IMG/VR virus record: IMGVR_UViG_3300010371_001397
Span: 1-41,905 of that record
Length of the DNA: 41,905 nt
Source of the DNA: a virus
Reading direction: 5' to 3' (one strand)
The notes beneath the pieces were generated by a model. It worked only from the letters and a program-made list of their open reading frames with translations. It was not told the DNA's origin and did no database searches. The translations under genes and the position numbers were made by a program. Below are positions 1,154 through 22,530 of the stretch, in pieces; position 1 is the first letter of the stretch, and every line of letters begins with the position of its first letter.

Positions 1154-1660
1154 ATGCGGAAAGAGATTGACGAGTTGAGCCAGATGACAGTCGGCCAGCT
1201 CCGCCAGAAGTACCTTGAGGTGTTCGGCGAGGAGTCCAGATCGAATCATAAGCAGTTCCTGTTTCGGAGGATCGCCTGGCGCATTCAGGCAATAGCCGAG
1301 GGTGGCCTCTCCGAACGCGCGCGCCGCCGCGCGCTGGAGATCGCCAACGACGCGGACCTTCGCATCCGGGCACCCAAGAGCAGGTTCGGACAGGACGTGA
1401 CTCTCGACCCGAAGCTCAGCGTCAGCCGGAAAGTGGCCAGCGCCGCCGATCCGCGTTTGCCGCCGCCGGGCACCTACCTCGAACGCGAGTATAAAGGTCG
1501 GCGCGTCATCGTGAAGGTCCTCGTGGACGGCTTCGAGTTCGATGGGCAGATCTACCGGTCCCTCAGCGCAATCGCCCACGAAGCGACCGGAACGAAGTGG
1601 AACGGCTTCCTCTTCTTCAATCTGACATCCGCGGAGGAGGATTCCAATGGCAAAGCATAG
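1154..1660 (+). CDS. DUF2924 family protein
   Basis: A 168-residue protein with the DUF2924 pattern: an N-terminal helix of the type MTVGQLRQKYLEVFGEES, then a basic FLFRRIAWRIQ segment, and a C-terminal region with a G-x-x-L-x-R-E-Y-K-G-R strand and an S-x-x-A-I-A-x-x-A-T-G-x-K-W-N-G motif. The C-terminal motif resembles small DNA-binding or recombinase-accessory folds. The start was placed at the ATG preceded by GGAG (1144-1147). Upstream in-frame ATGs at 1103 and 1124 have weaker ribosome sites. It overlaps the recombinase gene by 14 bases, so the two are co-translated. DUF2924 genes are typically found directly upstream of large serine recombinases. The function is not established; a role in integration or excision is inferred from the linkage. 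Confidence 0.85.
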   Translation: MRKEIDELSQMTVGQLRQKYLEVFGEESRSNHKQFLFRRIAWRIQAIAEGGLSERARRRALEIANDADLRIRAPKSRFGQDVTLDPKLSVSRKVASAADPRLPPPGTYLEREYKGRRVIVKVLVDGFEFDGQIYRSLSAIAHEATGTKWNGFLFFNLTSAEEDSNGKA

Positions 1661-3224
1661 CGGCCCCAAGGTTCCGACGAGGGCAGCGGAGGGATCGGGT
1701 CCGAAGACCGTCCGGTGCGCGATCTACACGCGCAAATCAACGGAGGAGGGACTTCAGCAGGAGTTCAACTCCCTAGACGCCCAGCGGGAAGCGTCCGAGG
1801 CTTTCATCAGCAGTCAGAAAAATGAAGGCTGGCAGGCGATTACCGACCATTTTGACGACGGCGGTTACACCGGCGGCAATATGGATCGGCCGGCACTGAA
1901 GCGCCTCCTCGCAGCGGTCGAAGCCCGAGCCGTTGACTGCATCGTCGTGTACAAGGTGGACCGACTCAGCCGTTCGCTTCTGGACTTCGCGCGTATCATC
2001 GAAATCCTCGACCGGAACGGCGTCAGCTTCGTGGCCGTGACCCAGCAGTTCAACACGACCAGTTCCCTCGGACGTCTTACGCTGAACATCCTCTTGTCGT
2101 TCGCGCAGTTCGAACGCGAGATCATTTCGGAGCGCACCCGCGACAAGATGTCGGCGGCGCGGCGGAAGGGCAAATGGGCTGGCGGCCACCCGGTCCTCGG
2201 GTACGACATCGACCCCAAGGGCGGCCGGATCGTCGTCAATCCGACGGAAGCCGAGCAGGTCCGAACCATGTTTGGCATGTACATGAAGATGGGATCAACG
2301 CTGCCAGTCCTTCAGGAAACCCAGCGGACCGGTCTCGTGAGCAAGCGCTGGACCACCGAAGACGGCAAGGTCCGCGGCGGGAAGCCCTTCACGAGAAGCT
2401 CGCTGCACGCGACGCTGACCAACGTCCTGTATACGGGAATGGTTGACCACAAGGGCGTCCTCTATGAAGGCGAGCACGACCGGATCATCGATCAGGACAC
2501 CTGGGATCGGGTCCATCAAATCCTGCGGCGCAACGGCAACGACAAGGGTGCCTCCGTCAGGAACAAGCTTGGGGCACTCCTGCGCGGGCTGCTCTTCTGC
2601 GTGCCGTGCGGTGCTCCGATGATGCACACCTACACGATGCGGAAGTCGAAACGGTATCGCTATTACGTCTGCTACAACGCCCAGCAGCAGGGATGGCAGA
2701 ATTGCGAAACGAAGTCGGTTTCGGCGCAGGCCATCGAGACGGCGGTTCTGGACAGCATCCGCCGGATCGGAACGGACCCAAAGCTTGCGGAGGCCGTTGC
2801 CGCCGAAGCCATCGACCAGGTCGCGCGTCAGCGCGCCGCCCTCGACAAGGAACTGGACACACAACGCGGGAGCCTCCGGCGGCTCAACCAGAGCCTCGCC
2901 CGCGAGGCCGCCGACACGAGCGTAGATTCCGGCGCGCGGTTCGACCGGATCGTCGCACTTCAGCGGGAGATCGAAGCTTCGGAACACCGCCTGACGGAAC
3001 TGGCGGCGGATCGGAAGTCATGTGACGAGGACCGCATCAACGCCGCCGATCTTCATAAGACCCTTTCGGAGTTCGACTCAATCTGGTCGTCCCTTGTCGC
3101 GAGAGAACAGGAGCAACTGATTCAAATGTTGGTCGCCAAGGTCGGCTATGACGGGCGTACCGGTAAGGTCACCGTCAATTTTCGTAGCGCAGGAGCGAAG
3201 GAACTATGCCAAGGAAAGAGCTAA
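1647..3224 (+). CDS. Large serine recombinase (resolvase/invertase family integrase)
   Basis: A 525-residue large serine recombinase, the likely integrase/excisionase of this element. The N-terminal resolvase domain carries the nucleophile in YTRKST (Ser31), the FNSLDAQRE helix (40-48) and the catalytic-arginine motif KVDRLSRS (103-110). The central recombinase domain is followed by a zinc ribbon with Cys318, Cys321, Cys342 and Cys353. A charged coiled coil runs from about 390 to 455, as in phiC31-type integrases, where it controls synapsis. The start ATG follows an AGGAGG-type site (GGAGGAGG) and overlaps the DUF2924 gene. The downstream helix-turn-helix gene overlaps its 3' end by 19 bases. 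Length and domain order are those of an intact enzyme. Attachment sites were not identified. Confidence 0.95.
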   Translation: MAKHSGPKVPTRAAEGSGPKTVRCAIYTRKSTEEGLQQEFNSLDAQREASEAFISSQKNEGWQAITDHFDDGGYTGGNMDRPALKRLLAAVEARAVDCIVVYKVDRLSRSLLDFARIIEILDRNGVSFVAVTQQFNTTSSLGRLTLNILLSFAQFEREIISERTRDKMSAARRKGKWAGGHPVLGYDIDPKGGRIVVNPTEAEQVRTMFGMYMKMGSTLPVLQETQRTGLVSKRWTTEDGKVRGGKPFTRSSLHATLTNVLYTGMVDHKGVLYEGEHDRIIDQDTWDRVHQILRRNGNDKGASVRNKLGALLRGLLFCVPCGAPMMHTYTMRKSKRYRYYVCYNAQQQGWQNCETKSVSAQAIETAVLDSIRRIGTDPKLAEAVAAEAIDQVARQRAALDKELDTQRGSLRRLNQSLAREAADTSVDSGARFDRIVALQREIEASEHRLTELAADRKSCDEDRINAADLHKTLSEFDSIWSSLVAREQEQLIQMLVAKVGYDGRTGKVTVNFRSAGAKELCQGKS

Positions 3225-3865: not shown

Positions 3866-5122
3866 ATGGCCAGACCCAAAGTCGCTGCTGCAAGATCCAG
3901 AATTGTGAACGTCCGGCTCACAGAAGACGAATATCGGGAGATGTCGGTTGCGGCAGAAGCGTTGGGCTATCCAACACTCAGTGAATACATCCGTCATTTG
4001 CGCAAGAACGCGGACGAGCCCGCTTCATCGGCCAACACGATAGCTGACAGTCACGTTGCAGACTTGTACCCAACGCCCACGCGATTCTCGACCACGCGGT
4101 ATGGGGAGATACTGCTTGGCGATTCACTTGGCCTTCTCCATCGCACATTGAAGGCGAACAGCGTGGATCTAATCATGACTTCGCCCCCCTTCGGACTGGT
4201 GCGCAAGAAGTCCTACGGGAACAAGGATGCCGACGAATATCTTGATTGGTTCAGGCCATTTGCGGAGGGCTTCAGTCGCGTTCTGAAGGATTCCGGAAGT
4301 CTCGTAATCGATATTGGTGGCTCGTGGAACAAAGGGACACCCACTCGGTCGCTCTACCACTTCGAGCTGCTGCTAATGCTTTGCCAAGAGTATGGATTTC
4401 ACCTTTGCGAAGAGCATTTTTGGTGGAACCCGGCAAAGCTGCCGACCCCTGCCGAGTGGGTTAACGTTCGACGCGTTCGCGTTAAGGATGCGGTCAACTG
4501 CATCTGGTGGCTGTCAAAAACGCCTTGGCCCAAGGCAAACAACCGGCGCGTGCTCGCTCCGTACAGCGATTCGATGCATCACCTCCTCAAGAACGGATAC
4601 AAAGCCCAGTTGCGCCCCTCGGGGCATGACATTTCAACCAAGTTCCAGAAGGACAACGGCGGCTCTGTTCCGCCAAACCTGATCGCATTAGCAAACACGG
4701 AATCAAACAGTTACTATCAGGAGTACTGCCGAGCGAATAACCTCACGGTCCACCCGGCGAGGTTCCCGATTGGCATTCCCGCGTATTTCACAAAGTTCCT
4801 CACCGACCGCGGAGATCTGGTAGTTGATCCGTTCGGAGGGTCGTGCGTGACCGGGGAAGCCTGCGAAGCGCTTGAACGCCAGTGGATATGCTGCGAACTC
4901 GACGAGCAGTTTCTAAAAGGGGCAGTTTGCCGTTTCCAGAAACCGAAGGTCACGACGATACCGAAGGAAAAGTCGTCGAAATTGGTGGTCCGCGACAAGC
5001 CGTACGAAATCTATGCGCCGTGCACGGTTGATGTATCCGATGAAGAAGCACCCTTATTTAACGACGGCGGCCATGCTCGCCCGGAAGTGAGCGTTCCGGC
5101 GAAGACTGTCCGAGCTTCATAG
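3866..5122 (+). CDS. Ribbon-helix-helix / DNA methyltransferase (m4C or m6A, TSPPF type)
   Basis: A 418-residue beta-class DNA amino-methyltransferase. The catalytic motif IV is TSPPF (105-109) and precedes the SAM-binding motif I, DPFGGSC (321-327), the order typical of beta-class enzymes. TSPPF and the HPARFP segment (296-301) just before motif I are common in N4-cytosine methyltransferases. Residues 13-46 (IVNVRLTEDEYREM then TLSEYIRHL) form a ribbon-helix-helix-like DNA-binding segment, an unusual addition. The start follows GAGG with 5-base spacing and its own promoter; an upstream ATG at 3743 lies before that promoter. The gene ends 46 bases from the end of the facing nuclease gene. No restriction gene lies on the same strand, so it is either an orphan or the modification arm of the minus-strand operon. 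Confidence 0.85.
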   Translation: MARPKVAAARSRIVNVRLTEDEYREMSVAAEALGYPTLSEYIRHLRKNADEPASSANTIADSHVADLYPTPTRFSTTRYGEILLGDSLGLLHRTLKANSVDLIMTSPPFGLVRKKSYGNKDADEYLDWFRPFAEGFSRVLKDSGSLVIDIGGSWNKGTPTRSLYHFELLLMLCQEYGFHLCEEHFWWNPAKLPTPAEWVNVRRVRVKDAVNCIWWLSKTPWPKANNRRVLAPYSDSMHHLLKNGYKAQLRPSGHDISTKFQKDNGGSVPPNLIALANTESNSYYQEYCRANNLTVHPARFPIGIPAYFTKFLTDRGDLVVDPFGGSCVTGEACEALERQWICCELDEQFLKGAVCRFQKPKVTTIPKEKSSKLVVRDKPYEIYAPCTVDVSDEEAPLFNDGGHARPEVSVPAKTVRAS

Positions 5123-5168: not shown

Positions 5169-6419
5169 TTATGCAAGAGCATACAGGTTGTCGGCCCAAC
5201 TGGTCAGCTGCCCGCGCTTGATTCCTTCAAAGTCGACGATCAATGGGACATTCGGCGGGCGCGGTACAGGCATTGGCACCGCATTTCGGATCACGGCAAT
5301 GATCGATCGGCCGAGAAGAGCATCGAGTTCGGACACCGGCCCATAGCCGCGTCCATAGCGAACCAACTGGGTGGTTGCTTCTCGAACTCGGCCAAGGTTA
5401 TCCTCCGCCTCGCCACTGAAGAACTTAACCTCAACAACGGCGACCACCGATCCGGCCTCCGCATCCACGACCACGAGATCGGGCCGATCACCACTTGGCG
5501 AGAGTCCATAAGCCAATAGGATGCGCTTAACGATTGCCTCAGAGGGCTCTGCCACCGGCTCCTGATACAAATTGGTGCGAGTTTGCCAGAAGATCGCAAA
5601 CCGGCCAATCCGCGCAATGGGCTCCTTATTATCGGCGCGCAAGAGAGAGAGCACGGCAGGTTCGCCCATCGATTGTTCCAGCCCTTCCGCTAGGCTGAGG
5701 CCGACCGCGAGTTCGAATCGTTGCCACGTTTCAAGCGGGCCAAGCAGAGTCGCCTGCAGCATGCGGCCAATCACTTCGAGGTCGCCGGTCTCGACCGCTA
5801 CGAGATCCATAAATGCCTTGTACGCGAGCCGGTACATCATCCGGCGTGAACGGACGGCTTGTTGCAGTGCGCCGCCCCGAGGCCGCCCAGCAAGATTGGT
5901 CTCACTCATAGCGGTCCGGATTGCATCGATCCTGCGAACGCGCTCTAGACTGAGGACGTTCGCCTCGACGGCATCACGATAGCCGGTCTCCTCCGGTAGC
6001 AGGCTCAAAAAGCGTGCCGAAAGCCGCCATGCCTGTTCGAGCACCCACGCAACGACCTGGTTTGCGCCGGATGCGAACGACCGCACCGGCTCTTGGGTGA
6101 CTGTTGCGGTTGGGTGGCCCGTGGCCATTCGCCGAATGATTGTCGCGCGAGCATCGAGTCGACCGCGGATAACACCGTCCTCGACGTGCTCTCGAGAACT
6201 CAGGAAGCTTTGGGTTTCATGGCGGTTGGCGAGGACGTAGGCCGTAAGTTCCCGCAGAGCGGGTGACATGCTCCAATGCAGCCGGAGCATCTCCATATCG
6301 CGCGACAGATCGAGGCGCGGTCGGCCAATCTCAACCCCGAAGGCCTTTCGAAAATACCTGAGCAGGATTCGGCCAATGTGATCGTTGATCGTAATGCTCG
6401 GATCACTGGGCGTGGTCAT
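5169..6419 (-). CDS. McrC-like PD-(D/E)XK nuclease, last gene of the defence operon
   Basis: A 416-residue protein with a long helical N-terminal part and a C-terminal PD-(D/E)XK nuclease signature. The signature is RPDLVVVD (Asp314) followed by VVEVKF (Glu330, Lys332) and a downstream amphipathic helix with QLVRYGRGY. Just before it, a W-x-x-F-E-L-A stretch (232-239) resembles the conserved segment preceding the nuclease core in McrC/DUF2357 proteins. It overlaps the McrB-like gene by four bases (ATGA), so the pair is translationally coupled like mcrB-mcrC. The likely role is DNA cleavage driven by the AAA+ partner. The helical N-terminal 200 residues are not recognised and may contact the ATPase or the DNA target. 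The catalytic residues look intact. Confidence 0.75.
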   Translation of the reverse strand: MTTPSDPSITINDHIGRILLRYFRKAFGVEIGRPRLDLSRDMEMLRLHWSMSPALRELTAYVLANRHETQSFLSSREHVEDGVIRGRLDARATIIRRMATGHPTATVTQEPVRSFASGANQVVAWVLEQAWRLSARFLSLLPEETGYRDAVEANVLSLERVRRIDAIRTAMSETNLAGRPRGGALQQAVRSRRMMYRLAYKAFMDLVAVETGDLEVIGRMLQATLLGPLETWQRFELAVGLSLAEGLEQSMGEPAVLSLLRADNKEPIARIGRFAIFWQTRTNLYQEPVAEPSEAIVKRILLAYGLSPSGDRPDLVVVDAEAGSVVAVVEVKFFSGEAEDNLGRVREATTQLVRYGRGYGPVSELDALLGRSIIAVIRNAVPMPVPRPPNVPLIVDFEGIKRGQLTSWADNLYALA

Positions 6420-7537
6420 ACGGCCACGCTAAGCAAGCGGCTCTTCAGTGTTACGCTCAGTTCGTCGTCCCGAGTGAGACCGAGTGACTCGGCAACCTTG
6501 GCAGCCACATTCTCCGCATCATGCCGCAAGATGCCGTCGAGCATCGGCACCAAGTACATGAAAAAACCATCGAGATACGCCGTCGCCTGATCTGCAGTCG
6601 GAACACTCAGGAAATCCATTTGGGGCGCGATGGAGTTTGCCGTCTTGATCAGATCAATGAACGGTGCCGGTCCTATGACGCGAACCTCATTAACAGCGCG
6701 CCATACTCCGGCGAGCGGTACGGAACCCGGCGCAGACGGTTCTGTTTTTAACAATGCTGAGCGCCTCAGGTATTCGACGATGAAGGCATCGAGATCTTTC
6801 GGCGCATCGACATAAATCCACCCGAAGCGGCGCGTCAGTGCATAGCTCATTTGGTAAAGCGACGCTTTGTCTATTGAGTTGATGGTCGCGATAATCCGCC
6901 ACGCGGCAGTCGGGGCGAATTCGTGCGTTGCCGCCGAGGGTTTCGGCTGGGGCAGAATCACATATTGATCGCTGTCCTTGTTCGTGACATCGACCCGGTA
7001 TGGCAGGGTTGTCGCCTGACCGCTCAGCACTGTGAAGAGAGGACCGATCACCTTATCGATGTCACAACGGTTGAGTTCGTCAATGATTAGCGGCCTATCA
7101 AAGTCCCGGAGGAGCACACCCGGTATAAACGCGATCTTTCCATCGCCAATCGGTTGATAACCGCCGATCACATCCTGAGACGTCCAATCAGCCGAACCGG
7201 TTATCAAGCGCCATTGGTTATGGAGCGCGGCGGCCACGTTGCGGGCGAGCGAGGTCTTTCCCGTACCGGGGGGCCCGTAGAACATCAGGTGCTGCTTGCC
7301 GGCGCGCAGGGCCGCCTGAATCTGCCGGTAAACCGCTGGTTCGATGCCGATCAGATCAGCCGCATTTGCAATCTCAATTTCGCCCGTCGGCGCTGGCAGG
7401 GTCGCGGTTTCATCGGCCTCGTCTGAGGGAGCAGCGGCGGCGGATGCCGATTGCTGATAGGCAGCCGTTACGTCCCGTATGAGACGCGCACGGTCGCCTT
7501 CATCGAGCCCGTGATATATGGGAACGTTAATTGCCAT
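6416..7537 (-). CDS. McrB-like AAA+ NTPase
   Basis: A 373-residue AAA+ protein of the McrB/MoxR/dynein-related type. Walker A is GPPGTGKTS (88-96), the WTSQDVIGGY segment follows (118-127), Walker B is LIIDELNR (150-157) and sensor 1 is ATIN (217-220). The following SIDKASL resembles the McrB GTPase motif NTADRS, and the arginine finger is in ALTRRF (233-238). Unlike Escherichia coli McrB it has no large N-terminal DNA-recognition domain, only about 60 residues before the AAA+ core. That role may fall to the preceding 488-residue protein, whose gene overlaps this one by 11 bases. It probably forms a ring that translocates DNA and activates the nuclease encoded immediately downstream. GTP versus ATP preference cannot be read from sequence. 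Confidence 0.85.
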   Translation of the reverse strand: MAINVPIYHGLDEGDRARLIRDVTAAYQQSASAAAAPSDEADETATLPAPTGEIEIANAADLIGIEPAVYRQIQAALRAGKQHLMFYGPPGTGKTSLARNVAAALHNQWRLITGSADWTSQDVIGGYQPIGDGKIAFIPGVLLRDFDRPLIIDELNRCDIDKVIGPLFTVLSGQATTLPYRVDVTNKDSDQYVILPQPKPSAATHEFAPTAAWRIIATINSIDKASLYQMSYALTRRFGWIYVDAPKDLDAFIVEYLRRSALLKTEPSAPGSVPLAGVWRAVNEVRVIGPAPFIDLIKTANSIAPQMDFLSVPTADQATAYLDGFFMYLVPMLDGILRHDAENVAAKVAESLGLTRDDELSVTLKSRLLSVAV

Positions 7538-8993
7538 CAGCGCGCTCCGTTATCAGGGCAGCAAGGGTAGGCGCGACGTGAAGCAGGCCCTTGATTGCGG
7601 CGGTGGCCTGCGCGTAGGTCGCGGACCTTGAAACACCAGCCACCGATGTAGAGAATACGTCATCGTCAGCATTAAGGCCAATCAGGACTGCCGTGATGTA
7701 CGGTTGCGGATGCCCCATATACTGGACCTCGCCGGTCGCCGAATCATAGCCTTCGAGCAATTGAGCTGAAGAACCAACACCGAGGGCTGGAAGGAAACAG
7801 AAGAGAAATATCCACTCCCAGGCCTCGTAGAAGACATATTTCTCGGCGGCAACTTTGATGGCGGGGATCACACGGGTCGCTACTGCGCCGCTGTTTCCCT
7901 GCGCGGCGTTGAAGGCTCCCAGGCGGCGCGCACCATGGAAAGGGGGAATGCTGGCAACGACCGAATCGCCCGTTATATCGAGGTGTACGAACCACCGCAA
8001 CGGCTTATTGGTAGCGTCGCTCGGATCTTGCCAGAACCCGGTTGTCTCGTCGACCGGGCGCGTCTTCTCCAGCGTCGCAACCTTGCTTCCGCACTGGTTA
8101 AGTTGCAGGTTGAAATCGTTGAGCACGTTTGAGAGATCGGCGGCGATGGCTTTGCGGGCGTCGTCGCGAAGCTTGGTCAACCATTGCCCTTGCAACGGGG
8201 GACGATAGAAATCTAGTTCCGTAGTGCCGTATTCTGCTTCGAGCGTCTGTCTGATGGCCAAGATAGCTCGATCAAGGTTCAGAGGAGTAGGACTCGTGGC
8301 TGATGGGCGCTGGTCCGTCGGGATCTTATTCTTAAAGGCGGCGTAGATAAGTCGCTTGTGCGAATTGCTCGCTATACGCTCAATCTGGTCTGGGAATAGG
8401 AGATAGAGGAGCGTGTTCCGTGTGGGCCGCTTGTCGGCATCAGCAATCTGGTCAAGCCACGATACAAATGCCCATGGCGGATCGGTGGTCATAAGACGTG
8501 TGCGCTCTGTCGCAGCCAATGACTTCCACTCACGCAGCACGGTGAGAAGAAACTCGAATTCAGTCGGTATGCCGGTCAAATAAAACGTGCCGGGGCTGCC
8601 AACGCCTTCGAGCGATGCCGCGTTGCTGAGTAATGGCGTGGTCGGCACTTCCTCACCCGACCATCGCCAGATCTCCGAGATGTGACGGAGCTTCGTCGAG
8701 GGGCCGATACTCGTCTTATGGGGGAAGAGCAGGACAACCCAGATGCATTCTGCCGCCAACTTCTTTATGTCTGCCGAGGCAGGAGTCAGTTGTTCTCGCA
8801 GTTTGTCGTAGAACGTCCTGTCCCCAAGAATCGGGTTGCCCGAAAACGTTGTGAGCAGCGCATCCACGTTCGCAAGCGTCCAAAGAGACGCGTTCGTGAA
8901 TACTGAACCGTCGCCCATGAAGCAGCGGTCCCGCCACGTCACCGCCGCCTCCAAGACTGCCGATATCGCGGGTTCTCCTGTCCAACGTGCCAA
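7527..8993 (-). CDS. Defence-operon protein with McrB-N-terminal-type motif
   Basis: A 488-residue protein with no catalytic motif that I can recognise. Around residues 200-225 it reads LLYLLFPDQIERIASNSHKR, very like a segment (L-L-H-L-L-F-P-D-x-F-E-x-I-V-S-x-x-H-K) that I associate with regions N-terminal to McrB-type AAA+ domains. Here that region would be a separate polypeptide. The C-terminal half mixes helices and strands and has a hydrophobic aromatic stretch (YEAWEWIFLFCFLPAL) that could be buried core; a membrane segment is less likely. The start is a TTG preceded by GAGGAAA at good spacing. It overlaps the NTPase gene by 11 bases, which supports a stoichiometric complex. A role as target sensor or adaptor of the McrB-like ring is an inference. 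Confidence 0.6.
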   Translation of the reverse strand: MARWTGEPAISAVLEAAVTWRDRCFMGDGSVFTNASLWTLANVDALLTTFSGNPILGDRTFYDKLREQLTPASADIKKLAAECIWVVLLFPHKTSIGPSTKLRHISEIWRWSGEEVPTTPLLSNAASLEGVGSPGTFYLTGIPTEFEFLLTVLREWKSLAATERTRLMTTDPPWAFVSWLDQIADADKRPTRNTLLYLLFPDQIERIASNSHKRLIYAAFKNKIPTDQRPSATSPTPLNLDRAILAIRQTLEAEYGTTELDFYRPPLQGQWLTKLRDDARKAIAADLSNVLNDFNLQLNQCGSKVATLEKTRPVDETTGFWQDPSDATNKPLRWFVHLDITGDSVVASIPPFHGARRLGAFNAAQGNSGAVATRVIPAIKVAAEKYVFYEAWEWIFLFCFLPALGVGSSAQLLEGYDSATGEVQYMGHPQPYITAVLIGLNADDDVFSTSVAGVSRSATYAQATAAIKGLLHVAPTLAALITERADGN

Positions 8994-9083
8994 CGGCGTT
9001 TCCTCGTATTGTTCTTGGTGATTGTAACGTATTGGTTGCGAATGACTTGCAGCGGGCCCGGTCCGCGCTCAGAACCACCGCCA

Positions 9084-9764
9084 TTAGCGCTGGTCTGTTC
9101 GACGAAGCAGCACGTCAATTTCAGCGGCAAAGCGCTCGCGCATGAGGTGGTGAAGTTCCTGCAGGCTGTTCACCTCTGCGAGCGTTATGGCTCCGCCGCC
9201 ATGGCGGAGCGCTATGCCCTTTTCGTGGGCTGCGCTTTTCGCGGAAGCGATGAGCTTCTCGATGTTGTTATACCGCCCCGTGAATTCGATGGCGCTGCTA
9301 CGCGAGGATATTTTCCAGAACCCACAGGCATCGTGAAAAGTGATTTCGTCGATGCGCCCCTCTCTTAGCTTGTCCGTCGCTTTCGATTTGAGAAGCCGCT
9401 CCAACTCATCTTTGAGAGGACGTGCGAGTCCGACTTTTTCCGTTCCGGCGGCTTCCGCTTGCAACCCGTCCGCGTAGTCCGCCCCTGCCTCCGTGAGCTG
9501 ATAGAGTTTGTTGCCCACCTTCACCAGATACCCCCGTTGCCGCACCGGTTTTGTGCCCATGATCTCTGCAAACACCCTGTTGGAATCCGGGTATGCGCTT
9601 CGACCGTTACTATCGGCGTAGCCGGGAAGTCCAAACGTATCAGGGTATGCCCGCCATGCAGCGACGACGAGATCCTCGGCTGTGAAGGGTGACTTGCCAG
9701 CCATCCTCAGTTGTTGTGCTGCTACGACGAGTTTGTCGGCTACGCTTAGCTTTCGGTCGGTCAT
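9084..9764 (-). CDS. Winged-helix protein of the defence operon
   Basis: A 226-residue soluble protein. The N-terminal half (FTAEDLVVAAWRAYPDTF, then AYPDSNRVFAEIMG and RGYLVKVGNKLYQLTEAG) has the rhythm of a winged-helix DNA-binding domain: helix, recognition helix around the SNRVFAEIMG segment, and a two-stranded wing ending in YQLT. I have seen this type of N-terminus in proteins of restriction-like islands. The C-terminal 120 residues are helical and unrecognised. The start ATG at 9764 follows AGGGAG and lies 8 bases after the stop of the ATPase gene. A longer frame upstream overlaps that gene and lacks a ribosome site. It may recognise DNA for the complex or regulate the operon. Confidence 0.7.
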   Translation of the reverse strand: MTDRKLSVADKLVVAAQQLRMAGKSPFTAEDLVVAAWRAYPDTFGLPGYADSNGRSAYPDSNRVFAEIMGTKPVRQRGYLVKVGNKLYQLTEAGADYADGLQAEAAGTEKVGLARPLKDELERLLKSKATDKLREGRIDEITFHDACGFWKISSRSSAIEFTGRYNNIEKLIASAKSAAHEKGIALRHGGGAITLAEVNSLQELHHLMRERFAAEIDVLLRRTDQR

Positions 9765-9772
9765 GATACTCC

Positions 9773-12046
9773 CTATGCGGTGGGCAGCGTTCCTTCCTTT
9801 ATGAAGTCGAGAAGTGAACTGGCTGCGGCAGCTTGGATTTCTGCGGCCTTGGTCCCCCATTGATTGAGGTAGTCGTCGATTGAAGAATCCGGCTGCTCCT
9901 TCGCGCTATAGGTGAGCGCGATCTGGATAAGGATTTCGACGTAACGTTCAAGGTGATACATCCGCCATTCGCGGGATTGGTAGCCATAATCTTTATCCTT
10001 GTCGAGGAGCATGGCCGCAATCGGGCTCGAACTGTTGATCCACCAGATATTCCGGTCAACGTCTTGTGGACCTTGATAGACCGGCGGGTAGTCCCGGCTT
10101 AGGTGCACCGGCTGATTCGTGTCGGGGTCGTTATTGATGGAAGAAACGAGAATCGTTGGATACCCGCGCCCTTTCCCTTCCGTACCTCCAGCCCCCGTGC
10201 CGGGAATCACGCGGACGGCTGCCGGTAATTTTGCCATGGCGTGATCGTCGCCCGCAGCAATTTGACACTCGCCGACGTCGAACCCGTAGACGACTCCTGC
10301 GGCGCTAACCCGGGCTATCTTCGCATTGTCTTCGGTCCACACGAGGTAGACCCCGGACGATTTTTCCCCGGTAGCAAGCGTGCAAACGGCTTCGAGCGCG
10401 CGGCGCGATCCGACCGGCAGTTCCACGGTGTTCGGAATGATCTCGATTTCGTGGATAACGACGACCGAAAGGCTCGTGGTGTTAGAGCGCACTTTTCCGT
10501 CCAACGTCTCTGCATGGAGGTTTGTAGTGCCAGCGGCATAGGTATTGATCACACCGAGATCTTCATCAACCATCGCCACGTTCGTGTCATCGCTCACCCA
10601 TCGGTAGGGCACGGGCCTGATCCGGTCGTCCTTAGCATCAAAAAACTCAACCGTCGGTTTCAGAGAGACACCGACACCAGCCTGATTGTGTGAGAGGTTG
10701 ACATGGATTCTCGCAGGCTTGCCGCTTGGGAGGCGATGGGGTGGTGGTGGCTCTTTCTCTACACCTTTTCCCTTGCCGCCGAAGAGGTTATCCAGGAACT
10801 GGTTCTTCCAGCGATCCAGCGCCTCGTTGATCTTGCTGAGTTCGCTCTTCTCCTTCTGATCGTACTTTTTCTTCTCCTTGGCCTCGAATTCCTTGGCGTA
10901 CTTCGTGATCTGCTCGGAGAGAAATACCTTAACAGCGCGCGTCAGGGGCCCTTCGGCAAGCAGGCCGCGATCATTCTGTGTGAATGTTTCGAGGGCCGCA
11001 AGGCTGCACTCGCCGTAAATATTGTCCCGGAAAGGCGACTGAACGTCGAGATCAAGAACAGGGACATACCCGACATATTCTGTTCCGACCTTGAACGTAA
11101 TCGTGTGACGGCCCTTCTTGCCCCACCGCATGCTCTTATCGGAAGTCTTCAGGACGAGTTGCCCCACCGGTCGTTTGCCGCCGTCTGTTGTAGACACGGA
11201 CGTTTTGTACGCGGGATCGGGTAGCACTTCCGGGATGGCGATGACACGGGGCGTTTCGCCCCCGTGCAAAGGAGGAATCTGCGCAAGCGCGAGCGGCTTC
11301 CCTTCGTTCATCGGCGTCCCGTTCAACATCACGTACACCTGACAGAATTCGAGCGTGCGGATCATTTGCGGGTGTTCCTGTAGATGGTCGACAAGCGCAG
11401 TGAGCGCTCCCCGTCCTACAAGATCTTTCGGCCCGAACCCTGACACGACCGTGTAGCCAACGCAGTTGGACGCGGCGTTTTTGACGGCCGGTGGGAGGTG
11501 CTCCGGGCTGCAGTGGAGTTCTTCGAGCGTACTGGCGAGCCGGGTAGGCGCGTTCGGGACTTTATAGTCGCGACCTTCGCTGCGGGAAGGGAAATATCCA
11601 AATTTTACCGAGTTCGCGACGACGCCGTAGGTGCATCCGAGGCGGTTCTTAACGGTTTGGACAAGCGCGTGGCTCTCAAACATCTGGCACATGTAACACT
11701 TGCCACCATTGCCGTGTCCGCCTTGGATGGAGTCACCTTTTGCGCCACGCTGCGCCGCGTCGGGGTCCGCCCACCTCCTGAAGTGTTGTTCGATCACGTC
11801 GCTCGTCATCCCCGAGAAGTCGAGACACGAGATCGACGCGGTGCGTTTCCTGCGATCATCATTGAGGATGAGCACGATGATACGGTCAGCTGCATCGCGA
11901 TTGTTTCTCGCGTACTCGTCGGCGCTGTTCTTTACCCATTCGGGCAGGCCATTCTCGTGAGTCTGGAATGGGGCGCAGATTAAACGGATCGCACCTTCCT
12001 GGTGAACCTTCACATCTAGGTCTGGCGTGTACTGTACGGTGCTCAT
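9773..12046 (-). CDS. GHKL (MORC/Hsp90-like) ATPase with two Ig-like domains
   Basis: A 757-residue protein. The N-terminal Bergerat-fold ATPase shows the N box (Glu36, Asn40, Asp43 in LPEWVKNSADEY), the G1 box DFSGM (76-80) and a glycine-rich lid GGHGNGGK (109-116). A transducer-like region extends to about 345 and a charged helix or coiled coil lies at about 380-412. Two tandem beta-rich segments (about 446-531 and 533-615) look like bacterial Ig-like (BIG2-type) domains: each has V-x-x-x-x-x-G-V-I/V-Y/N-x-x-x-x-G-x-x spacing. The last 130 residues are helical. GHKL ATPases of the MORC/MutL type are known from restriction-modification operons, where ATP-driven dimerisation clamps DNA. Ig-like domains in a protein without a signal peptide are unusual. 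The start at 12046 has GGAGG upstream. Confidence 0.8.
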   Translation of the reverse strand: MSTVQYTPDLDVKVHQEGAIRLICAPFQTHENGLPEWVKNSADEYARNNRDAADRIIVLILNDDRRKRTASISCLDFSGMTSDVIEQHFRRWADPDAAQRGAKGDSIQGGHGNGGKCYMCQMFESHALVQTVKNRLGCTYGVVANSVKFGYFPSRSEGRDYKVPNAPTRLASTLEELHCSPEHLPPAVKNAASNCVGYTVVSGFGPKDLVGRGALTALVDHLQEHPQMIRTLEFCQVYVMLNGTPMNEGKPLALAQIPPLHGGETPRVIAIPEVLPDPAYKTSVSTTDGGKRPVGQLVLKTSDKSMRWGKKGRHTITFKVGTEYVGYVPVLDLDVQSPFRDNIYGECSLAALETFTQNDRGLLAEGPLTRAVKVFLSEQITKYAKEFEAKEKKKYDQKEKSELSKINEALDRWKNQFLDNLFGGKGKGVEKEPPPPHRLPSGKPARIHVNLSHNQAGVGVSLKPTVEFFDAKDDRIRPVPYRWVSDDTNVAMVDEDLGVINTYAAGTTNLHAETLDGKVRSNTTSLSVVVIHEIEIIPNTVELPVGSRRALEAVCTLATGEKSSGVYLVWTEDNAKIARVSAAGVVYGFDVGECQIAAGDDHAMAKLPAAVRVIPGTGAGGTEGKGRGYPTILVSSINNDPDTNQPVHLSRDYPPVYQGPQDVDRNIWWINSSSPIAAMLLDKDKDYGYQSREWRMYHLERYVEILIQIALTYSAKEQPDSSIDDYLNQWGTKAAEIQAAAASSLLDFIKEGTLPTA

Positions 12047-12071
12047 CGGTCGTAAACCTCCAAAGCTCGCG

Positions 12072-12665
12072 CTACTTCTTCTCGTGTCCCTGCTGACGCT
12101 GTTCAAAGATTTTGATCCACCCGGGGCGCGGCCGACTTGCGTATCCTTCCGCCATCAGAATGCCGCCAACGTATGCGGCGGGCCCCATTTTCGTCTCCCA
12201 GTTTTCCTTAATCCAGTGGCCGAAGCTTCCAGGCTCTGGCTGCGAGAAATTCAATCCGGCGCGGATTTCTTTTCCTCGAAACGTCTTCAGCAGCAACGCC
12301 CATTGGGCTGCATCGAATCGGAGCTTGTAGTTGGCTTTCTTGCTCGGCCAAATTATGGTCCCGGTCTCCACGCTGCCGGAGTACCTGAAGGATGATTGTC
12401 CGCCGAACGTTGGGCATTCCTGATCACGAATTCCGTGATCGGCTGGCGATGCCGGAGCGGGTGCTTCTCTTGTAGTTACCGGTGTCGCGAGCTGCGCTAT
12501 GACGACCGACTGGTCAAGGTATTTCGCAAGATCACTCTCTCCAACGCGCACTTCCCCGCCGATGCGGTAGGCCCGTAGTTGCCCCGACTGCACGAGCTGG
12601 TGGACGACCTCGAGGTCAACCTTGAGCAGTGCCGCCAGATCTTCTTCTGAGTAAAAACTCGTCAT
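12072..12665 (-). CDS. Excisionase-type HTH regulator heading the defence operon
   Basis: A 197-residue protein whose first 56 residues are a MerR/excisionase-type helix-turn-helix (YSEEDLAALLKVDLEVVHQL, then AYRIGGEVRVGESDLAKYL). After a Pro/Ala-rich linker, residues 85-197 form a second, unrecognised domain with many aromatic residues. It is the first gene of the minus-strand operon, 25 bases upstream of the ATPase gene. Its ATG lies eight bases after a predicted -10 hexamer and has no Shine-Dalgarno sequence, so the message may be leaderless. Direct repeats overlapping that promoter are candidate operators. The most likely role is autoregulation of the operon; a structural role through the C-terminal domain is also possible. 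Confidence 0.7.
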   Translation of the reverse strand: MTSFYSEEDLAALLKVDLEVVHQLVQSGQLRAYRIGGEVRVGESDLAKYLDQSVVIAQLATPVTTREAPAPASPADHGIRDQECPTFGGQSSFRYSGSVETGTIIWPSKKANYKLRFDAAQWALLLKTFRGKEIRAGLNFSQPEPGSFGHWIKENWETKMGPAAYVGGILMAEGYASRPRPGWIKIFEQRQQGHEKK

Positions 12666-12715: not shown

Positions 12716-12987
12716 TTTACAAGCCTTAAGTATGAAAATTGTTGATTAAAAACATAGATGCGATCCAGCATCTCGCTGCCATAAGGAGCGCCTGGGGCTG
12801 CCTCTGATAATTCGCGGTGCCCCCCCAACCCACGCGGCGGTCCGGGCCGCAACAATTCTGGCCGATCCTGTTTTTTTGATAAAATGAAGTAAAGAGAGGC
12901 CTCTGCACCTTCGGATTGGGGGACGGCAGGGGTCAGATCGGCACTATTAGTCCGTGGCGGTTCCTCTCTTTGAAGGGGCTGAATTAC

Positions 12988-14157
12988 ATGGCCACGAACT
13001 ATAGTCCAAAGCATTTCCTTCGCCAGGTACCGAACCCTCTTTTGAAGGCGTTCTTTGATCGGCGAGGAGAACTTACTCAGGTTGCCTGGGACCAACTCGG
13101 AGAGATGGACGCCGATCCAGTCTTCGAGGCCTGGCAGACCCTTCCCGAAACAGCCCGCGCCGAAGTCGAGCGAACTTTCCGTTCGGTCTCAGATCTTGCC
13201 TCTGCACAGGGGCTACAGACGCTGATCGAAGAGGGCCAGTTCCATCGTGTGGATCTGACCCCAAGCCTGAACCAGCTCAAGGGTCTCCACGAAAAAGTCT
13301 TCTGGGTTTACCTCAACCACGAGAAAGTGTTCGTCTCGGCAGGGCGGTTGAATCGCGCGGACCATTTGAACGGACGCTACTGGAGACGCCGAACCGACCT
13401 GCCTGCGAAGAAACCGGATATCAGCCACCCAACGCGGGAACTCCTGGCGCAGGCGATCTCGAAGTATTACCGGGACCGTCAGGGACGCGGCGAGCACTGC
13501 AAGGTTGAGGTCTATCTCCGACGCGAGAAGATTCATTACTTTTTCGCTTACCCCGCAGATTACGCCGACACGGTGATCATCTATAACGACCTCGGGGCAC
13601 TCGAGCGCCAGGTTCAAAAGGCCGCATTTGAGGTCATATTCGCTTACAACGAAGCGTCGGGAACGCTGGATCTCTTTGTTCAGGGTGACAAGGACCTGCG
13701 GCGGGATATCGAGGAGATCTTCGCGCGCCTCATCCTCAAGGAGGAACTACCCACGGAGAGCGCCGCGCGCCAGCCGTATGAATTGAATGGTCTCCGCAGC
13801 CGCGATTTTGACTTTCCGACCGACCCGGAGGATTCCATCCAGGAAGTTCGCGTCAAGGCGCTGCGGCTATCGATAGTCGGGCCCGGTTTCGGGCGAATCA
13901 CATTTGAGAGCGATGCGCGGCGGAAGCGCGGCGACATCTACGACCTGATGGAGAAGAGCCTGAACAAAGTCCGGATGGATGCTGAGGCGATCAATGTAAC
14001 CCGTGCTGTGATGGACGTAATTTACGCAACCGGGGGCAAGCCGAAGACTGAGAACTTCTATATTGCGTATCCAGACACATGTAGCCTCAAGGACACGCCG
14101 GAGCATCTGAAGATTCAGGAGTATCTCCGGCGCTGGGGAATCGCCAGCGAGAATTAG
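12988..14157 (+). CDS. Protein of unknown function, first of a coupled pair
   Basis: A 389-residue soluble protein that I do not recognise. It reads as an ordered alpha/beta protein: a helical N-terminal region (LLKAFFDRRGELTQVAWDQL), a central beta-rich region (CKVEVYLRREKIHYFFAYPA, then VIIYNDLG), and a C-terminal region with VKALRLSIVGPGFGRITFES. No signal peptide, membrane segment or nucleotide-binding motif is visible. The ATG at 12988 follows GAAGGGG at 9-base spacing. An earlier in-frame ATG at 12916 is less well placed. The next gene starts two bases after the stop, so the two products are probably made together. It is divergent from the defence operon and sits before the phage replication genes. 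An accessory or defence role is a guess from position. Confidence 0.65.
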   Translation: MATNYSPKHFLRQVPNPLLKAFFDRRGELTQVAWDQLGEMDADPVFEAWQTLPETARAEVERTFRSVSDLASAQGLQTLIEEGQFHRVDLTPSLNQLKGLHEKVFWVYLNHEKVFVSAGRLNRADHLNGRYWRRRTDLPAKKPDISHPTRELLAQAISKYYRDRQGRGEHCKVEVYLRREKIHYFFAYPADYADTVIIYNDLGALERQVQKAAFEVIFAYNEASGTLDLFVQGDKDLRRDIEEIFARLILKEELPTESAARQPYELNGLRSRDFDFPTDPEDSIQEVRVKALRLSIVGPGFGRITFESDARRKRGDIYDLMEKSLNKVRMDAEAINVTRAVMDVIYATGGKPKTENFYIAYPDTCSLKDTPEHLKIQEYLRRWGIASEN

Positions 14158-14158
14158 C

Positions 14159-15349
14159 GTGCGCGCGTTCTGGATTCGCGCGGATCTCGATGAGGCCGCA
14201 TTCCGCGGCGACGAGCTTCCCGCGTTTGGGCCGGCGGCGTTGCAAGTTTTCAAAACAGAAAAACTGCTGAAGCGTGGCGAAGATCTCCGCGAGGTGGAGT
14301 GCGGGGACTGCGGCAACCCACACATCGAAAACGTCGACATCATCACCGATTCGCCCAGCGGTGTGCCGAGGGCCTACATCGCGTGCGGAGCCGGTCGCGC
14401 CTCAGTTGATCTGGTCCGCCTTCAGGTCTGGGCGATAGACTTTGATCGCCTTGCCGCCGTTGCGAGTTCAGCGCTCGGTTTGGGCGGTCGGATCATACAG
14501 GTCGCCGCAGACCGGGTTTGGCTTCTGGGCACAGCGAAGTTCGCCGACAGAACCCGAGACGTCTTCCTCGTGCGCGGGATCGGATGGCCGGACAGCCCCC
14601 TGCTTATTTCCGGGAATGCTCGTTTGTCCACGTCTCCCTGCCCGCTGATTCTCTGCATGAATCGCGTGCCGGATGACCCAGCCTGGCAGGGCGAACGCGC
14701 GGTCGTGCCGCTGTCTGAATTCGACTGGCTGGAGGGTGATCGATCCACGCTCCTGAAGAGAGTTACCGATATCCTCGAAGAATACCCGCGTCCGCCGGAA
14801 CTCACGCAGCAACGGGTGTTCCGCAAGGAAGGCGACTTCTGGAGTGTCAGGTTTGACGGCAAAACCATCCGGCTCAAAGATGGCAAGGGCCCGGTATACC
14901 TGTCGTATCTGCTGCGCCAGCCGGGGCGCGATTTCCCTGCGGTCGACCTTCTCAAAGCGGCCAGCGGTGCGGCTGTAGTCGCGGCGCGAAGTTCCGCTGG
15001 CACGGCAATCGACGAACAAGCGCGGGCGCAGTACAAGACGCGCGCGCATGAAATTCAGGACGAACTGGCCGAAGCCCGTAAACTCAATGACTCCGGCCGC
15101 GTCGCGACGCTTCAAGAAGAACTGGAAAAGATTGCGGAGCAAATGACGGCGGCCACGGGGCTGGGCGGTCGCCGCCGTTTGGTCGGTGATACCGCGGAGA
15201 AAGCACGGAAGTCTGTCTCGGCCGCCGTCAGTCGCACCGTTCGCCAGGCCGGGGCAGCAAACAGCAGTCTGGGCGAGCACCTTCAGAAGCACGTCTCGTC
15301 GGGTGCCGCCCTTTCCTACCAAGGCGACGGTACGCCGTGGACTTTTTAG
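14159..15349 (+). CDS. Protein with signal-transduction-type C-terminal winged-helix domain
   Basis: A 396-residue protein with a GTG start two bases after the preceding stop. The N-terminal 210 residues are not recognised; they include a CGDC pair (48-51). From about residue 218 the sequence follows a C-terminal module common in bacterial AAA/LuxR-type regulators and cyclases. It has VFRKEGDFWSVRFDGKTIRL (220-239), a K-G-x-x-Y-L-x-x-L-L-R-x-P-G-R segment (243-257), a Y-x-x-R-x-x-E-I-x-D-E-L-A-E-A helix (292-306), GLGGRRR (334-340) and the T-A-E-K-A-R-K-S-V segment (345-353). It ends in L-G-E-H-L-x-x-x-V-x-S-G-x-x-x-S-Y. In known proteins this module follows a signalling or ATPase domain. Here no ATPase is present, so it may act through the partner encoded just upstream. 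Confidence 0.65.
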   Translation: MRAFWIRADLDEAAFRGDELPAFGPAALQVFKTEKLLKRGEDLREVECGDCGNPHIENVDIITDSPSGVPRAYIACGAGRASVDLVRLQVWAIDFDRLAAVASSALGLGGRIIQVAADRVWLLGTAKFADRTRDVFLVRGIGWPDSPLLISGNARLSTSPCPLILCMNRVPDDPAWQGERAVVPLSEFDWLEGDRSTLLKRVTDILEEYPRPPELTQQRVFRKEGDFWSVRFDGKTIRLKDGKGPVYLSYLLRQPGRDFPAVDLLKAASGAAVVAARSSAGTAIDEQARAQYKTRAHEIQDELAEARKLNDSGRVATLQEELEKIAEQMTAATGLGGRRRLVGDTAEKARKSVSAAVSRTVRQAGAANSSLGEHLQKHVSSGAALSYQGDGTPWTF

Positions 15350-21135: not shown

Positions 21136-22530
21136 ATGCATCTCCCCACCCAGATCGAACTCAGGTCGGTCCGCGTGCTCCTGCCGCACGCCCGGAACTC
21201 GCGGACGCATTCGGACGAGCAGGTCGCGCAGGTAGCGGCCAGTATCCGGGAGTTCGGCTGGACGAATCCCATTCTGGTAGACGGCGACAGCGTCGTCATC
21301 GCCGGGCATGCCCGACTTCTCGCTGCCCGGAAGCTGGGGATGGAGGAAGTTCCGGTCATCGTGCTGGCCCACCTTACGCCAGCGCAGGAGCGGGCGCTGG
21401 TCATTGCCGACAACAAGCTGGCGTTGAACGCGGGCTGGGACGAAGAGATGCTGCGCGCGGAAGTCGCGGCGCTCCAGGAAGACGGCTTCGACCTCGACCT
21501 GGTTGGATTCTCCGACGAAGAGCTTCGCATCCTGCTGGCGGAACATGCCGTCGGCGGGGAGGACGACGAGGGCGAGGATAAAACTCCAGAACCACCCGTC
21601 AACCCGGTGTCGCGTCCCGGCGACGTGTGGGTGATCGGACGGCACCGTCTGATCTGCGGAGACTGTCGGGAGGCCGCTACGGTGGCTCGGCTGCTCTGCG
21701 ACGTTCGGGTCAACGTGGCGATCACCTCGCCGCCGTATGCTTCGCAGAGGACCTACGATCCGGCGAGTGGCTTCCAGCCAATCCCGCCCGACGAATACGT
21801 GGCGTGGTTCGGCGTGGTCGCGCGCAACGTTGCATCAGTGCTGGCTCCCGACGGCTCCTACTTCCTGAACATCAAAGAGCATTCGGAGGACGGCGAGCGC
21901 AGCCTCTACGTGAAGGATCTGGTGTTAGCCCATAAGCGGGAGTGGGGCTGGCGCTTCGTCGATGAGTTCTGCTGGAGGAATACCGCGAACGGTGTCCCGG
22001 GCAAGTGGCCGAACCGACTCAAGAACGCTTGGGAGCCCGTATTTCACTTCTGCCGCAACAAGGACATCAAGTTCCGGCCGAAGGACGCTGGTCACGAGTC
22101 CGAAGATGTCGTAGTCTACGCGCCGGGCAATCCCTCTGCGCCGAGCGGCTCCGGCCTGCTCGGTTGCGGTGCAGAGAAAACCACGGGCATCGCATGGCCA
22201 AGCAACGTGATCGAGGCCAAGGCCGAGGGCAGCCAGGGATCGCACTCCGCTCCGTTCCCCCGCACTCTGGTCGAGTTCTTCGTGAAAGCGTTCTCCGACG
22301 AAGACGATTCGATCTTCGACCCGTTCATGGGAAGCGGAACGACGATGGCAGCGGCGCACGTGCTCGGGCGGACCGGCTACGGAGTCGAACTCTCCCCCGC
22401 GTACTGCGACGTGATCCTCCGCCGTATGCAGGAACTCACGGGCGATGAGCCAGTACTGGCCGCGACGGGGCAGGCGCTCCGCGAAGTCGCGGAGGATCGT
22501 GGCGTGACCGAGGAGCGGAAAGCGGCTTGA
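21136..22530 (+). CDS. ParB-domain DNA methyltransferase 1 (TSPPY)
   Basis: A 464-residue two-domain protein. Residues about 8-130 are a ParB/sulfiredoxin-like domain (LLPHARNSRTHS, REFGWTNPILVDG, VIAGHARLLAARKLG, ADNKLALNAGWDEEML). The second domain is a beta-class DNA methyltransferase with catalytic TSPPY (197-201) before the SAM-binding DPFMGSGTT (395-403). It is one of a tandem pair of diverged copies, very alike in the ParB region. ParB-methyltransferase fusions are widespread in phages and are thought to modify phage DNA, protecting it from host restriction. The start ATG has no strong ribosome site. The next gene begins within its stop codon. Confidence 0.9.
   Translation: MHLPTQIELRSVRVLLPHARNSRTHSDEQVAQVAASIREFGWTNPILVDGDSVVIAGHARLLAARKLGMEEVPVIVLAHLTPAQERALVIADNKLALNAGWDEEMLRAEVAALQEDGFDLDLVGFSDEELRILLAEHAVGGEDDEGEDKTPEPPVNPVSRPGDVWVIGRHRLICGDCREAATVARLLCDVRVNVAITSPPYASQRTYDPASGFQPIPPDEYVAWFGVVARNVASVLAPDGSYFLNIKEHSEDGERSLYVKDLVLAHKREWGWRFVDEFCWRNTANGVPGKWPNRLKNAWEPVFHFCRNKDIKFRPKDAGHESEDVVVYAPGNPSAPSGSGLLGCGAEKTTGIAWPSNVIEAKAEGSQGSHSAPFPRTLVEFFVKAFSDEDDSIFDPFMGSGTTMAAAHVLGRTGYGVELSPAYCDVILRRMQELTGDEPVLAATGQALREVAEDRGVTEERKAA

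What the first reader, a model, noticed from the sequence alone, without database searches (positions are those of the whole stretch)
5169..12665. Composite GHKL-ATPase / winged-helix / McrBC-like operon as a candidate undescribed defence system
Six minus-strand genes in one tight run encode an HTH regulator, a MORC/Hsp90-like GHKL ATPase with Ig-like domains, a winged-helix protein, a 488-residue possible sensor protein, a McrB-like AAA+ NTPase and a McrC-like PD-(D/E)XK nuclease. McrBC pairs and MORC-like ATPases in restriction operons are each known, but I do not know this combination as a named system. Two different NTP-driven machines feeding one nuclease would be new mechanistically. It sits in the usual cargo position of a prophage, between integrase and replication genes.
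Basis: partly seen in the sequence, partly recalled or inferred. Interest (0 to 1): 0.85.

Follow-up and report, generated by a model that had tools for sequence, protein, structure and literature searches.

The report
Phage restriction island plus GHKL-ATPase cassette
A temperate phage carries next to its integrase a DNA restriction-modification set (a methyltransferase with a McrBC-like cutter) and, beside it, a rare uncharacterised ATPase pair that elsewhere has its own methyltransferase; the two sets have come together at least twice independently, which suggests they work together.

Summary
The six minus-strand genes are real and tightly packed, but the finding misses a seventh: the convergent methyltransferase gene at 3866-5122, a PvuII-type N4-cytosine enzyme. 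With it the locus resolves into two cassettes. Cassette 1 is methyltransferase + McrC-like PD-(D/E)XK nuclease + McrB-like AAA+ (NxxD motif) + the 488-aa protein. That protein joins two domains found elsewhere at the N-terminus of McrB-like AAA+ proteins, so it is probably the recognition subunit, not a separate sensor. Methyltransferase, nuclease and AAA+ recur together in 9 other phage or plasmid loci, often beside the same integrase: a McrBC/LlaJI-like restriction-modification system, a known kind. Cassette 2 is GHKL ATPase + 231-aa partner. The pair occurs in all 13 loci examined, across distant phyla and phages, usually beside its own PvuII-type methyltransferase, once beside a PLD nuclease; no library names it. 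The cassettes meet only here and on an Ensifer plasmid; trees show two independent joins, and in both only cassette 1's methyltransferase is adjacent. So this is a modular, convergent partnership, not one fixed six-gene machine. I favour two NTP-driven arms sharing one methyl mark; plain neighbours in a cargo site is the main rival. No function was tested.

The parts
3866..5122 (+). PvuII-type N4-cytosine DNA methyltransferase with N-terminal ribbon-helix-helix-like domain (cassette 1); listed ORF starts at GTG 3743, homologues start at ATG 3866
   Evidence: N6_N4_Mtase E 1e-34; M.PvuII structure 1boo E 4e-96; TSPPF catalytic motif and clade with McrBC-linked methyltransferases
5169..6419 (-). 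McrC-like PD-(D/E)XK nuclease (cassette 1)
   Evidence: R311, D313, E329, K331 invariant in 10 homologues; adjacent to the AAA+ gene in all of them
6416..7537 (-). McrB-like AAA+ NTPase (cassette 1)
   Evidence: AAA_5 E 2e-21, McrB chains 6hz4/6ut3, GPPGTGKT, IIDELNR, NSID (NxxD) motifs
7527..8993 (-). 488-aa protein: two McrB-type N-terminal domains (1-274 and 280-479), probable recognition subunit of cassette 1
   Evidence: N part is fused to AAA+ in Sinorhizobium, Fuscovulum, Mycobacterium; C part is fused to the AAA+ in Ensifer, Novacetimonas and viral loci; separate 492-aa gene in L049, 48.5% identical
9084..9764 (-). 226-231-aa obligate partner of the GHKL protein (cassette 2); fold not established
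   Evidence: follows GHKL in all 13 loci
9773..12046 (-). GHKL-S5 ATPase with Ig-like (Big_2) and conserved C-terminal domain (cassette 2)
   Evidence: AlphaFold2 pLDDT 83 for residues 1-400, Z 15.3 to Hsp90 and MORC3, 13.6 to MutL; motifs N45/D48, D81xG84, GHGNGGK invariant; Big_2
12072..12665 (-). HTH_17 (excisionase/MerR-like) DNA-binding protein, probable regulator of the run
   Evidence: PF12728 E 4.5e-9; not found with the other loci
1647..3224 (+). large serine integrase that marks the cargo site
   Evidence: PHROG 95 integrase E 3e-121; homologue beside the same module in L050, L053, L055
3206..3670 (+). 154-aa recombination-associated ORF between integrase and methyltransferase
   Evidence: PHROG 14161 E 1.5e-19; homologue in L050, L053, L055

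Best explanation
The locus is a phage-borne restriction-modification island built from two cassettes. Cassette 1 marks self DNA with N4-methylcytosine through a PvuII-type methyltransferase. A McrBC-like complex (488-aa recognition protein, AAA+ motor, PD-(D/E)XK nuclease) binds and cuts DNA that lacks the mark, as LlaJI does (enzyme type shown by homology; recognition of unmodified sites inferred). Cassette 2 is a MutL/MORC-like GHKL ATPase clamp with its small partner. I infer that it acts on incoming DNA as a second arm keyed to the same methyl mark, because elsewhere it travels with its own PvuII-type methyltransferase and here, as in Ensifer, only cassette 1's methyltransferase is adjacent. 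The HTH protein probably controls the run. The lysogen would thereby exclude unmethylated competing phages and plasmids.
For: Methyltransferase + McrC-like + AAA+ are together in window, L002, L010, L037, L049, L050, L052, L053, L055, L056. Methyltransferase closest to M.PvuII. 488-aa protein domains are N-terminal parts of McrB-like AAA+ elsewhere. GHKL + partner in 13/13 loci; PvuII-type methyltransferase beside them in window, L002, L008, L009, L016, L017, L018, L030. GHKL-S5 fold. Two independent joins: GHKL tree puts window with L008 and Ensifer with L017/L018, each 100/100, whereas McrC, methyltransferase and AAA+ trees put Ensifer with McrBC-only loci L010/L055 and the window outside (99/99, 97/96, 90/94). 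The GHKL-only methyltransferases form another clade, 100/99.
Against: Five well-flanked cassette-1 loci (L010, L037, L049, L052, L055) have no GHKL gene, so cassette 1 does not need it. Defence cassettes accumulate in cargo sites, so two joins can be coincidence of location. In Ensifer the GHKL pair is on the opposite strand to AAA+, so there is no conserved joint operon. L005 has GHKL + partner with no methyltransferase in about 10 kb upstream and 4 kb downstream. No functional data exist.
Confidence: 0.5

Rival explanations
1. Two independent defence cassettes that merely share a phage cargo hotspot: a complete McrBC/LlaJI-like restriction-modification system and a separate GHKL + partner system (perhaps decayed, having lost its own methyltransferase).
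For: Each cassette is found without the other in most loci; the module lies beside the integrase in four viral loci, a typical cargo site; the cassettes have a 90-base gap between them and opposite strands in Ensifer.
Against: GHKL + partner is very rare (about 1 in several hundred genomes), yet it met cassette 1 twice, and both times no GHKL-type methyltransferase of its own is adjacent.
Confidence: 0.37
2. One obligate six- or seven-gene machine in which GHKL and AAA+ both drive the single PD-(D/E)XK nuclease.
For: The window has all genes in one tight run on one strand; L008 shows a GHKL pair beside another nuclease (PLD).
Against: Most homologues of each cassette lack the other; gene order and orientation are not kept in Ensifer.
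Confidence: 0.07
3. The GHKL + partner pair is a RIIA/RIIB-like phage exclusion pair acting at the membrane or on host physiology, not on methylated DNA.
For: Foldseek against viral models lists many RIIA proteins for the GHKL domain; the pair is carried by phages.
Against: The match is to the generic GHKL-S5 fold (10-12% identity; Hsp90, MORC and topoisomerase score alike); the recurrent neighbour is a DNA methyltransferase, which RIIA/B does not explain.
Confidence: 0.05

Closest known systems
LlaJI restriction-modification system (PMC1459862)
   Same: McrB-like subunit for specificity, PD-(D/E)XK partner nuclease, cognate methyltransferase next door; restricts unmethylated DNA (the last is inferred here)
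   Different: LlaJI has two m5C methyltransferases and a one-piece R1; here one PvuII-type N4C methyltransferase, and the recognition part is a separate gene
Methyltransferase-associated NxxD McrB GTPase systems (noted in the McrBC census PMC11090510)
   Same: NxxD AAA+ motif and a linked DNA methyltransferase
   Different: That paper leaves these systems to a later publication and its main text holds no GHKL or MORC association (word search)
MORC and paraMORC GHKL ATPases of restriction-modification operons (PMC2292703)
   Same: GHKL + S5 ATPase beside DNA methyltransferases and exchangeable nucleases, including a PLD/HKD nuclease (L008)
   Different: No SFII helicase; MORC motif absent in all 13 proteins; Ig-like domain and a constant 231-aa partner
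VcSduA, GHKL-Shedu type I-D (PMC12137116)
   Same: GHKL ATPase used in a phage defence protein
   Different: VcSduA carries its own DUF4263 nuclease; here no nuclease domain is seen in the GHKL protein
PvuII restriction-modification system (plasmid pPvu1)
   Same: Methyltransferase family (46% identity)
   Different: PvuII restricts with a small type II enzyme, not a McrBC-like complex

Membership tests
McrBC/LlaJI-like restriction-modification system (cassette 1) | McrB-type AAA+ NTPase with Walker A/B and NxxD motif | tested here: met
   AAA_5 and McrB chains; NSID at 220-223
McrBC/LlaJI-like restriction-modification system (cassette 1) | Partner with PD-(D/E)XK active site in the adjacent gene | tested here: met
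   D313, E329, K331 invariant in 10 proteins; but no profile or PDB match to McrC itself
McrBC/LlaJI-like restriction-modification system (cassette 1) | Linked cognate DNA methyltransferase | tested here: met
   10 loci, same clade of methyltransferases
McrBC/LlaJI-like restriction-modification system (cassette 1) | Cleaves DNA lacking the cognate mark | not testable with these tools
   needs a restriction assay
LlaJI proper | Two m5C methyltransferases | tested here: not met
   one PvuII-type N4C methyltransferase
Type IV (modification-dependent) McrBC | No cognate methyltransferase in the system | tested here: not met
   methyltransferase conserved beside the nuclease in 10 loci
GHKL ATPase superfamily | Bergerat-fold motifs and GHKL-S5 fold | tested here: met
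   motifs invariant; Z 15.3 to Hsp90 and MORC3 over about 300 residues
MORC (as defined in PMC2292703) | GhXhhpXXRhl motif in the S5 domain | tested here: not met
   absent in 13 of 13
paraMORC1-5 (PMC2292703) | Family-specific C-terminal extensions (RecB-like nuclease, TIR, HxH domain) or ExxxH motif | tested here: inconclusive
   no ExxxH or HxH in the window protein, no nuclease or TIR profile match; paraMORC1 cannot be judged from the text
Shedu type I-D | DUF4263 nuclease domain fused to GHKL | tested here: not met
   no Pfam or PADLOC match of that kind
MADS | mad1-mad8 gene set | tested here: not met
   only weak generic HTH and AAA matches

The most novel reading that the evidence does not exclude
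GHKL ATPase + 231-aa partner + PvuII-type N4C methyltransferase is an undescribed family of methylation-keyed DNA immunity in which a MORC/MutL-like clamp captures unmethylated DNA, with nucleases plugged in interchangeably (McrBC, PLD, perhaps none), and which has been coupled twice to a McrBC-like system so that two ATP/GTP-driven machines read one mark.
Probability: 0.3. Interest if true: 0.75.

Novelty: new variant of a known kind. Interest (0 to 1): 0.5.

Why it matters
If the shared-mark reading is right, a prokaryotic MORC/MutL-like clamp would be shown to work with DNA methylation in self/non-self discrimination. That would make Iyer and colleagues' 2008 prediction, which ties GHKL ATPases of restriction-modification operons to the origin of eukaryotic MORC silencing proteins, directly testable in a small phage-borne locus. 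Even if the cassettes are independent, the GHKL + partner pair is a well-delimited, unnamed family for defence catalogues, and the split recognition subunit is a natural part-list for McrBC-like enzymes.

Tried and rejected
1. Known-system calls: PADLOC, NCBIfam and Pfam name only generic AAA, HTH and methyltransferase parts. 2. A six-gene conserved operon: rejected by the neighbourhoods. 3. PDB sequence searches with the McrC-like, 488-aa N-part and 231-aa alignments gave nothing significant; the weak PDB matches to the GHKL protein's Ig region at E 0.17-0.46 are chance. 4. Fold of the 488-aa protein: model pLDDT 53, helical N part only, no useful Foldseek match. 5. Single-sequence search of viral contigs for GHKL found nothing, alignment searches found four; McrC-like searches found nothing, single-sequence or alignment, while the AAA+ alignment found nine. 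6. Annotated phage genomes hold no GHKL relative. 7. CAGCTG sites, a possible target by analogy with PvuII, are only slightly fewer than expected in the window (6 against 10.0, sd 3.1), so no conclusion. 8. The genome search cannot draw relatives of a virus record, so host genomes of the phage were not sampled; Pseudomonadota chromosomes were not surveyed by phylum.

Full report
WHAT IS THERE. The window is a 41.9-kb IMG/VR virus record with a large serine integrase, primase, terminase, portal and head genes. The order on the + coordinate is integrase, 154-aa ORF, methyltransferase (+), then McrC-like, AAA+, 488-aa, 231-aa, GHKL and HTH genes (all -). Neighbouring genes overlap or nearly touch, except a 90-base gap between the 488-aa and 231-aa genes.

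CASSETTE 1: A McrBC-LIKE RESTRICTION-MODIFICATION MODULE. The AAA+ protein matches AAA_5 and McrB structures and has the McrB NxxD motif. The McrC-like protein has no family match above threshold, but its D313, E329 and K331 are invariant in ten homologues. The methyltransferase is closest to M.PvuII, an N4-cytosine enzyme (1boo, E 4e-96; 46% to the pPvu1 enzyme), and has the TSPPF motif. The same three genes are together, with the methyltransferase convergent to the nuclease, in an Ensifer plasmid (L002), a complete 12-kb Novacetimonas plasmid (L010), and viral contigs L037, L049, L050, L052, L053, L055 and L056. In L050, L053 and the window the order is integrase, 154-aa ORF, methyltransferase, nuclease, AAA+; in L055 it is inverted.

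THE 488-aa PROTEIN. Its first 274 residues are the N-terminal part of larger McrB-like AAA+ proteins with a downstream restriction-endonuclease gene in Sinorhizobium, Fuscovulum and Mycobacterium. Its last 200 residues are the N-terminal part of the AAA+ protein in Ensifer, Novacetimonas and most viral loci. L049 has the same full-length separate protein (48.5% over 476 residues). By the logic of McrB and R1.LlaJI, whose N-terminal parts bind DNA (PMC1459862), it is most likely the recognition subunit. Its fold could not be settled.

CASSETTE 2: GHKL ATPase AND PARTNER. An AlphaFold2 model of residues 1-400 of the GHKL protein (pLDDT 83) aligns over about 300 residues with Hsp90 and MORC3 (Z 15.3) and MutL (13.6). 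This shows a GHKL-S5 module, not membership of one of those families. The ATP-binding motifs are invariant in the relatives. The protein continues with an Ig-like Big_2 domain and a conserved C-terminal region. The 231-aa partner follows directly in all 13 loci examined, from Acidobacteriota, Planctomycetota, Gemmatimonadota, Omnitrophota, KSB1 and Bipolaricaulota genomes, an Ensifer plasmid and three viral contigs. The pair is rare: 2 of 396 Acidobacteriota genomes, and only the seed genome in 343, 298, 44, 82 and 334 genomes of other phyla. A PvuII-type methyltransferase lies beside it in 8 of the 10 loci with enough flanking sequence (window, L002, L008, L009, L016, L017, L018, L030); L017 and L018 are near-identical, and in the window and L002 that enzyme belongs to cassette 1. 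L006 has a different, weakly matched methyltransferase and L005 has none. Other neighbours vary: a PLD nuclease in L008, a YhcG-type nuclease upstream in L009, PIN genes upstream in L003, L007 and L030.

HOW THE CASSETTES MET. Both occur together only in the window and in Ensifer. The two GHKL proteins are 25% identical and sit in separate, fully supported clades (window with L008, Ensifer with L017/L018). The three cassette-1 trees agree that the Ensifer module is closer to GHKL-free loci L010 and L055 than to the window (McrC 99/99, methyltransferase 97/96, AAA+ 90/94). The methyltransferase next to both is of the cassette-1 clade, not of the clade that accompanies GHKL alone. The simplest history is two independent joins. 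In each the GHKL pair lies beside cassette 1's methyltransferase and has none of its own adjacent. The trees are small (10-21 rows), so this rests on few loci.

MECHANISM, SHOWN AND INFERRED. Shown by homology: N4C methyltransferase, McrB-like motor, PD-(D/E)XK nuclease, GHKL-S5 ATPase, HTH regulator. Inferred: the methyltransferase protects self DNA; the McrBC-like complex cuts unmarked DNA; the GHKL pair is a DNA clamp reading the same mark; the HTH protein regulates the run. The convergent joins and the constant presence of a PvuII-type methyltransferase argue for a shared mark. The five well-flanked GHKL-free modules argue that the GHKL pair is an accessory or a second arm rather than an obligate part.

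COMPARISON WITH THE KNOWN. Cassette 1 works like LlaJI and falls in the general class of methyltransferase-associated McrB GTPases mentioned in the McrBC census (PMC11090510), with a different methyltransferase type and a split recognition subunit. Cassette 2 resembles the MORC/paraMORC ATPases predicted for restriction-modification operons (PMC2292703), but it lacks the MORC motif in 13 of 13 proteins, has no helicase, and has a constant partner; it is not a Shedu I-D protein (PMC12137116). I found no named system with this pair in the libraries or papers searched. That is absence from the sources available here, which exclude most subscription journals.

VERDICT. I score it a new variant of a known kind, interest 0.5.

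Noticed in passing
L037:2514-11116 and L036:8001-11113: Viral contig L037 carries two McrBC-like systems back to back: the methyltransferase-nuclease-AAA+ module and a second AAA+ with the N-part of the 488-aa protein plus a 442-aa downstream ORF; L036 has the second kind alone.
   Followed up: partly
L003:9516-9917, L007:9364-9894, L030:13244-13642: PIN-domain genes lie directly upstream of the GHKL gene in three unrelated bacteria (in L030 after an AbrB-like ORF), looking like VapBC modules linked to the GHKL cassette.
   Followed up: partly
L009:3520-4593: The GHKL gene of a Bipolaricaulota genome is interrupted by a DDE_3 transposase insertion; the Omnitrophota copy (L007) holds an in-frame TAG, so some copies are decaying.
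   Followed up: no
L010:7496-8323 and L049:13739-14575: A 275-aa protein (47% identical between the two loci) with a PD-x-E-x-K-like motif accompanies the methyltransferase-McrBC module where GHKL is absent; it may be another plug-in nuclease.
   Followed up: partly
window 21136-22530 and 22527-23780: Two adjacent genes each match PHROG 498 and ParB-like families: tandem ParB-methyltransferase fusions in the phage's own replication/packaging region.
   Followed up: no
window 12916-14157 and 14159-15349: Two + strand genes divergent from the HTH gene; the first matches PHROG 37634 of unknown function (E 4e-27), the second has a distant relative in L036 (29% over its C-terminal part).
   Followed up: no
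L006:8085-17178: The Longimicrobiales GHKL locus sits in a defence island with a DUF4268 protein, a D12-like methyltransferase ORF and an Eco57I-like methyltransferase.
   Followed up: no
window 37917-41486: A 1189-aa ORF with a tape-measure-like match only in part (PHROG 12506, E 1e-6), near the end of the record.
   Followed up: no
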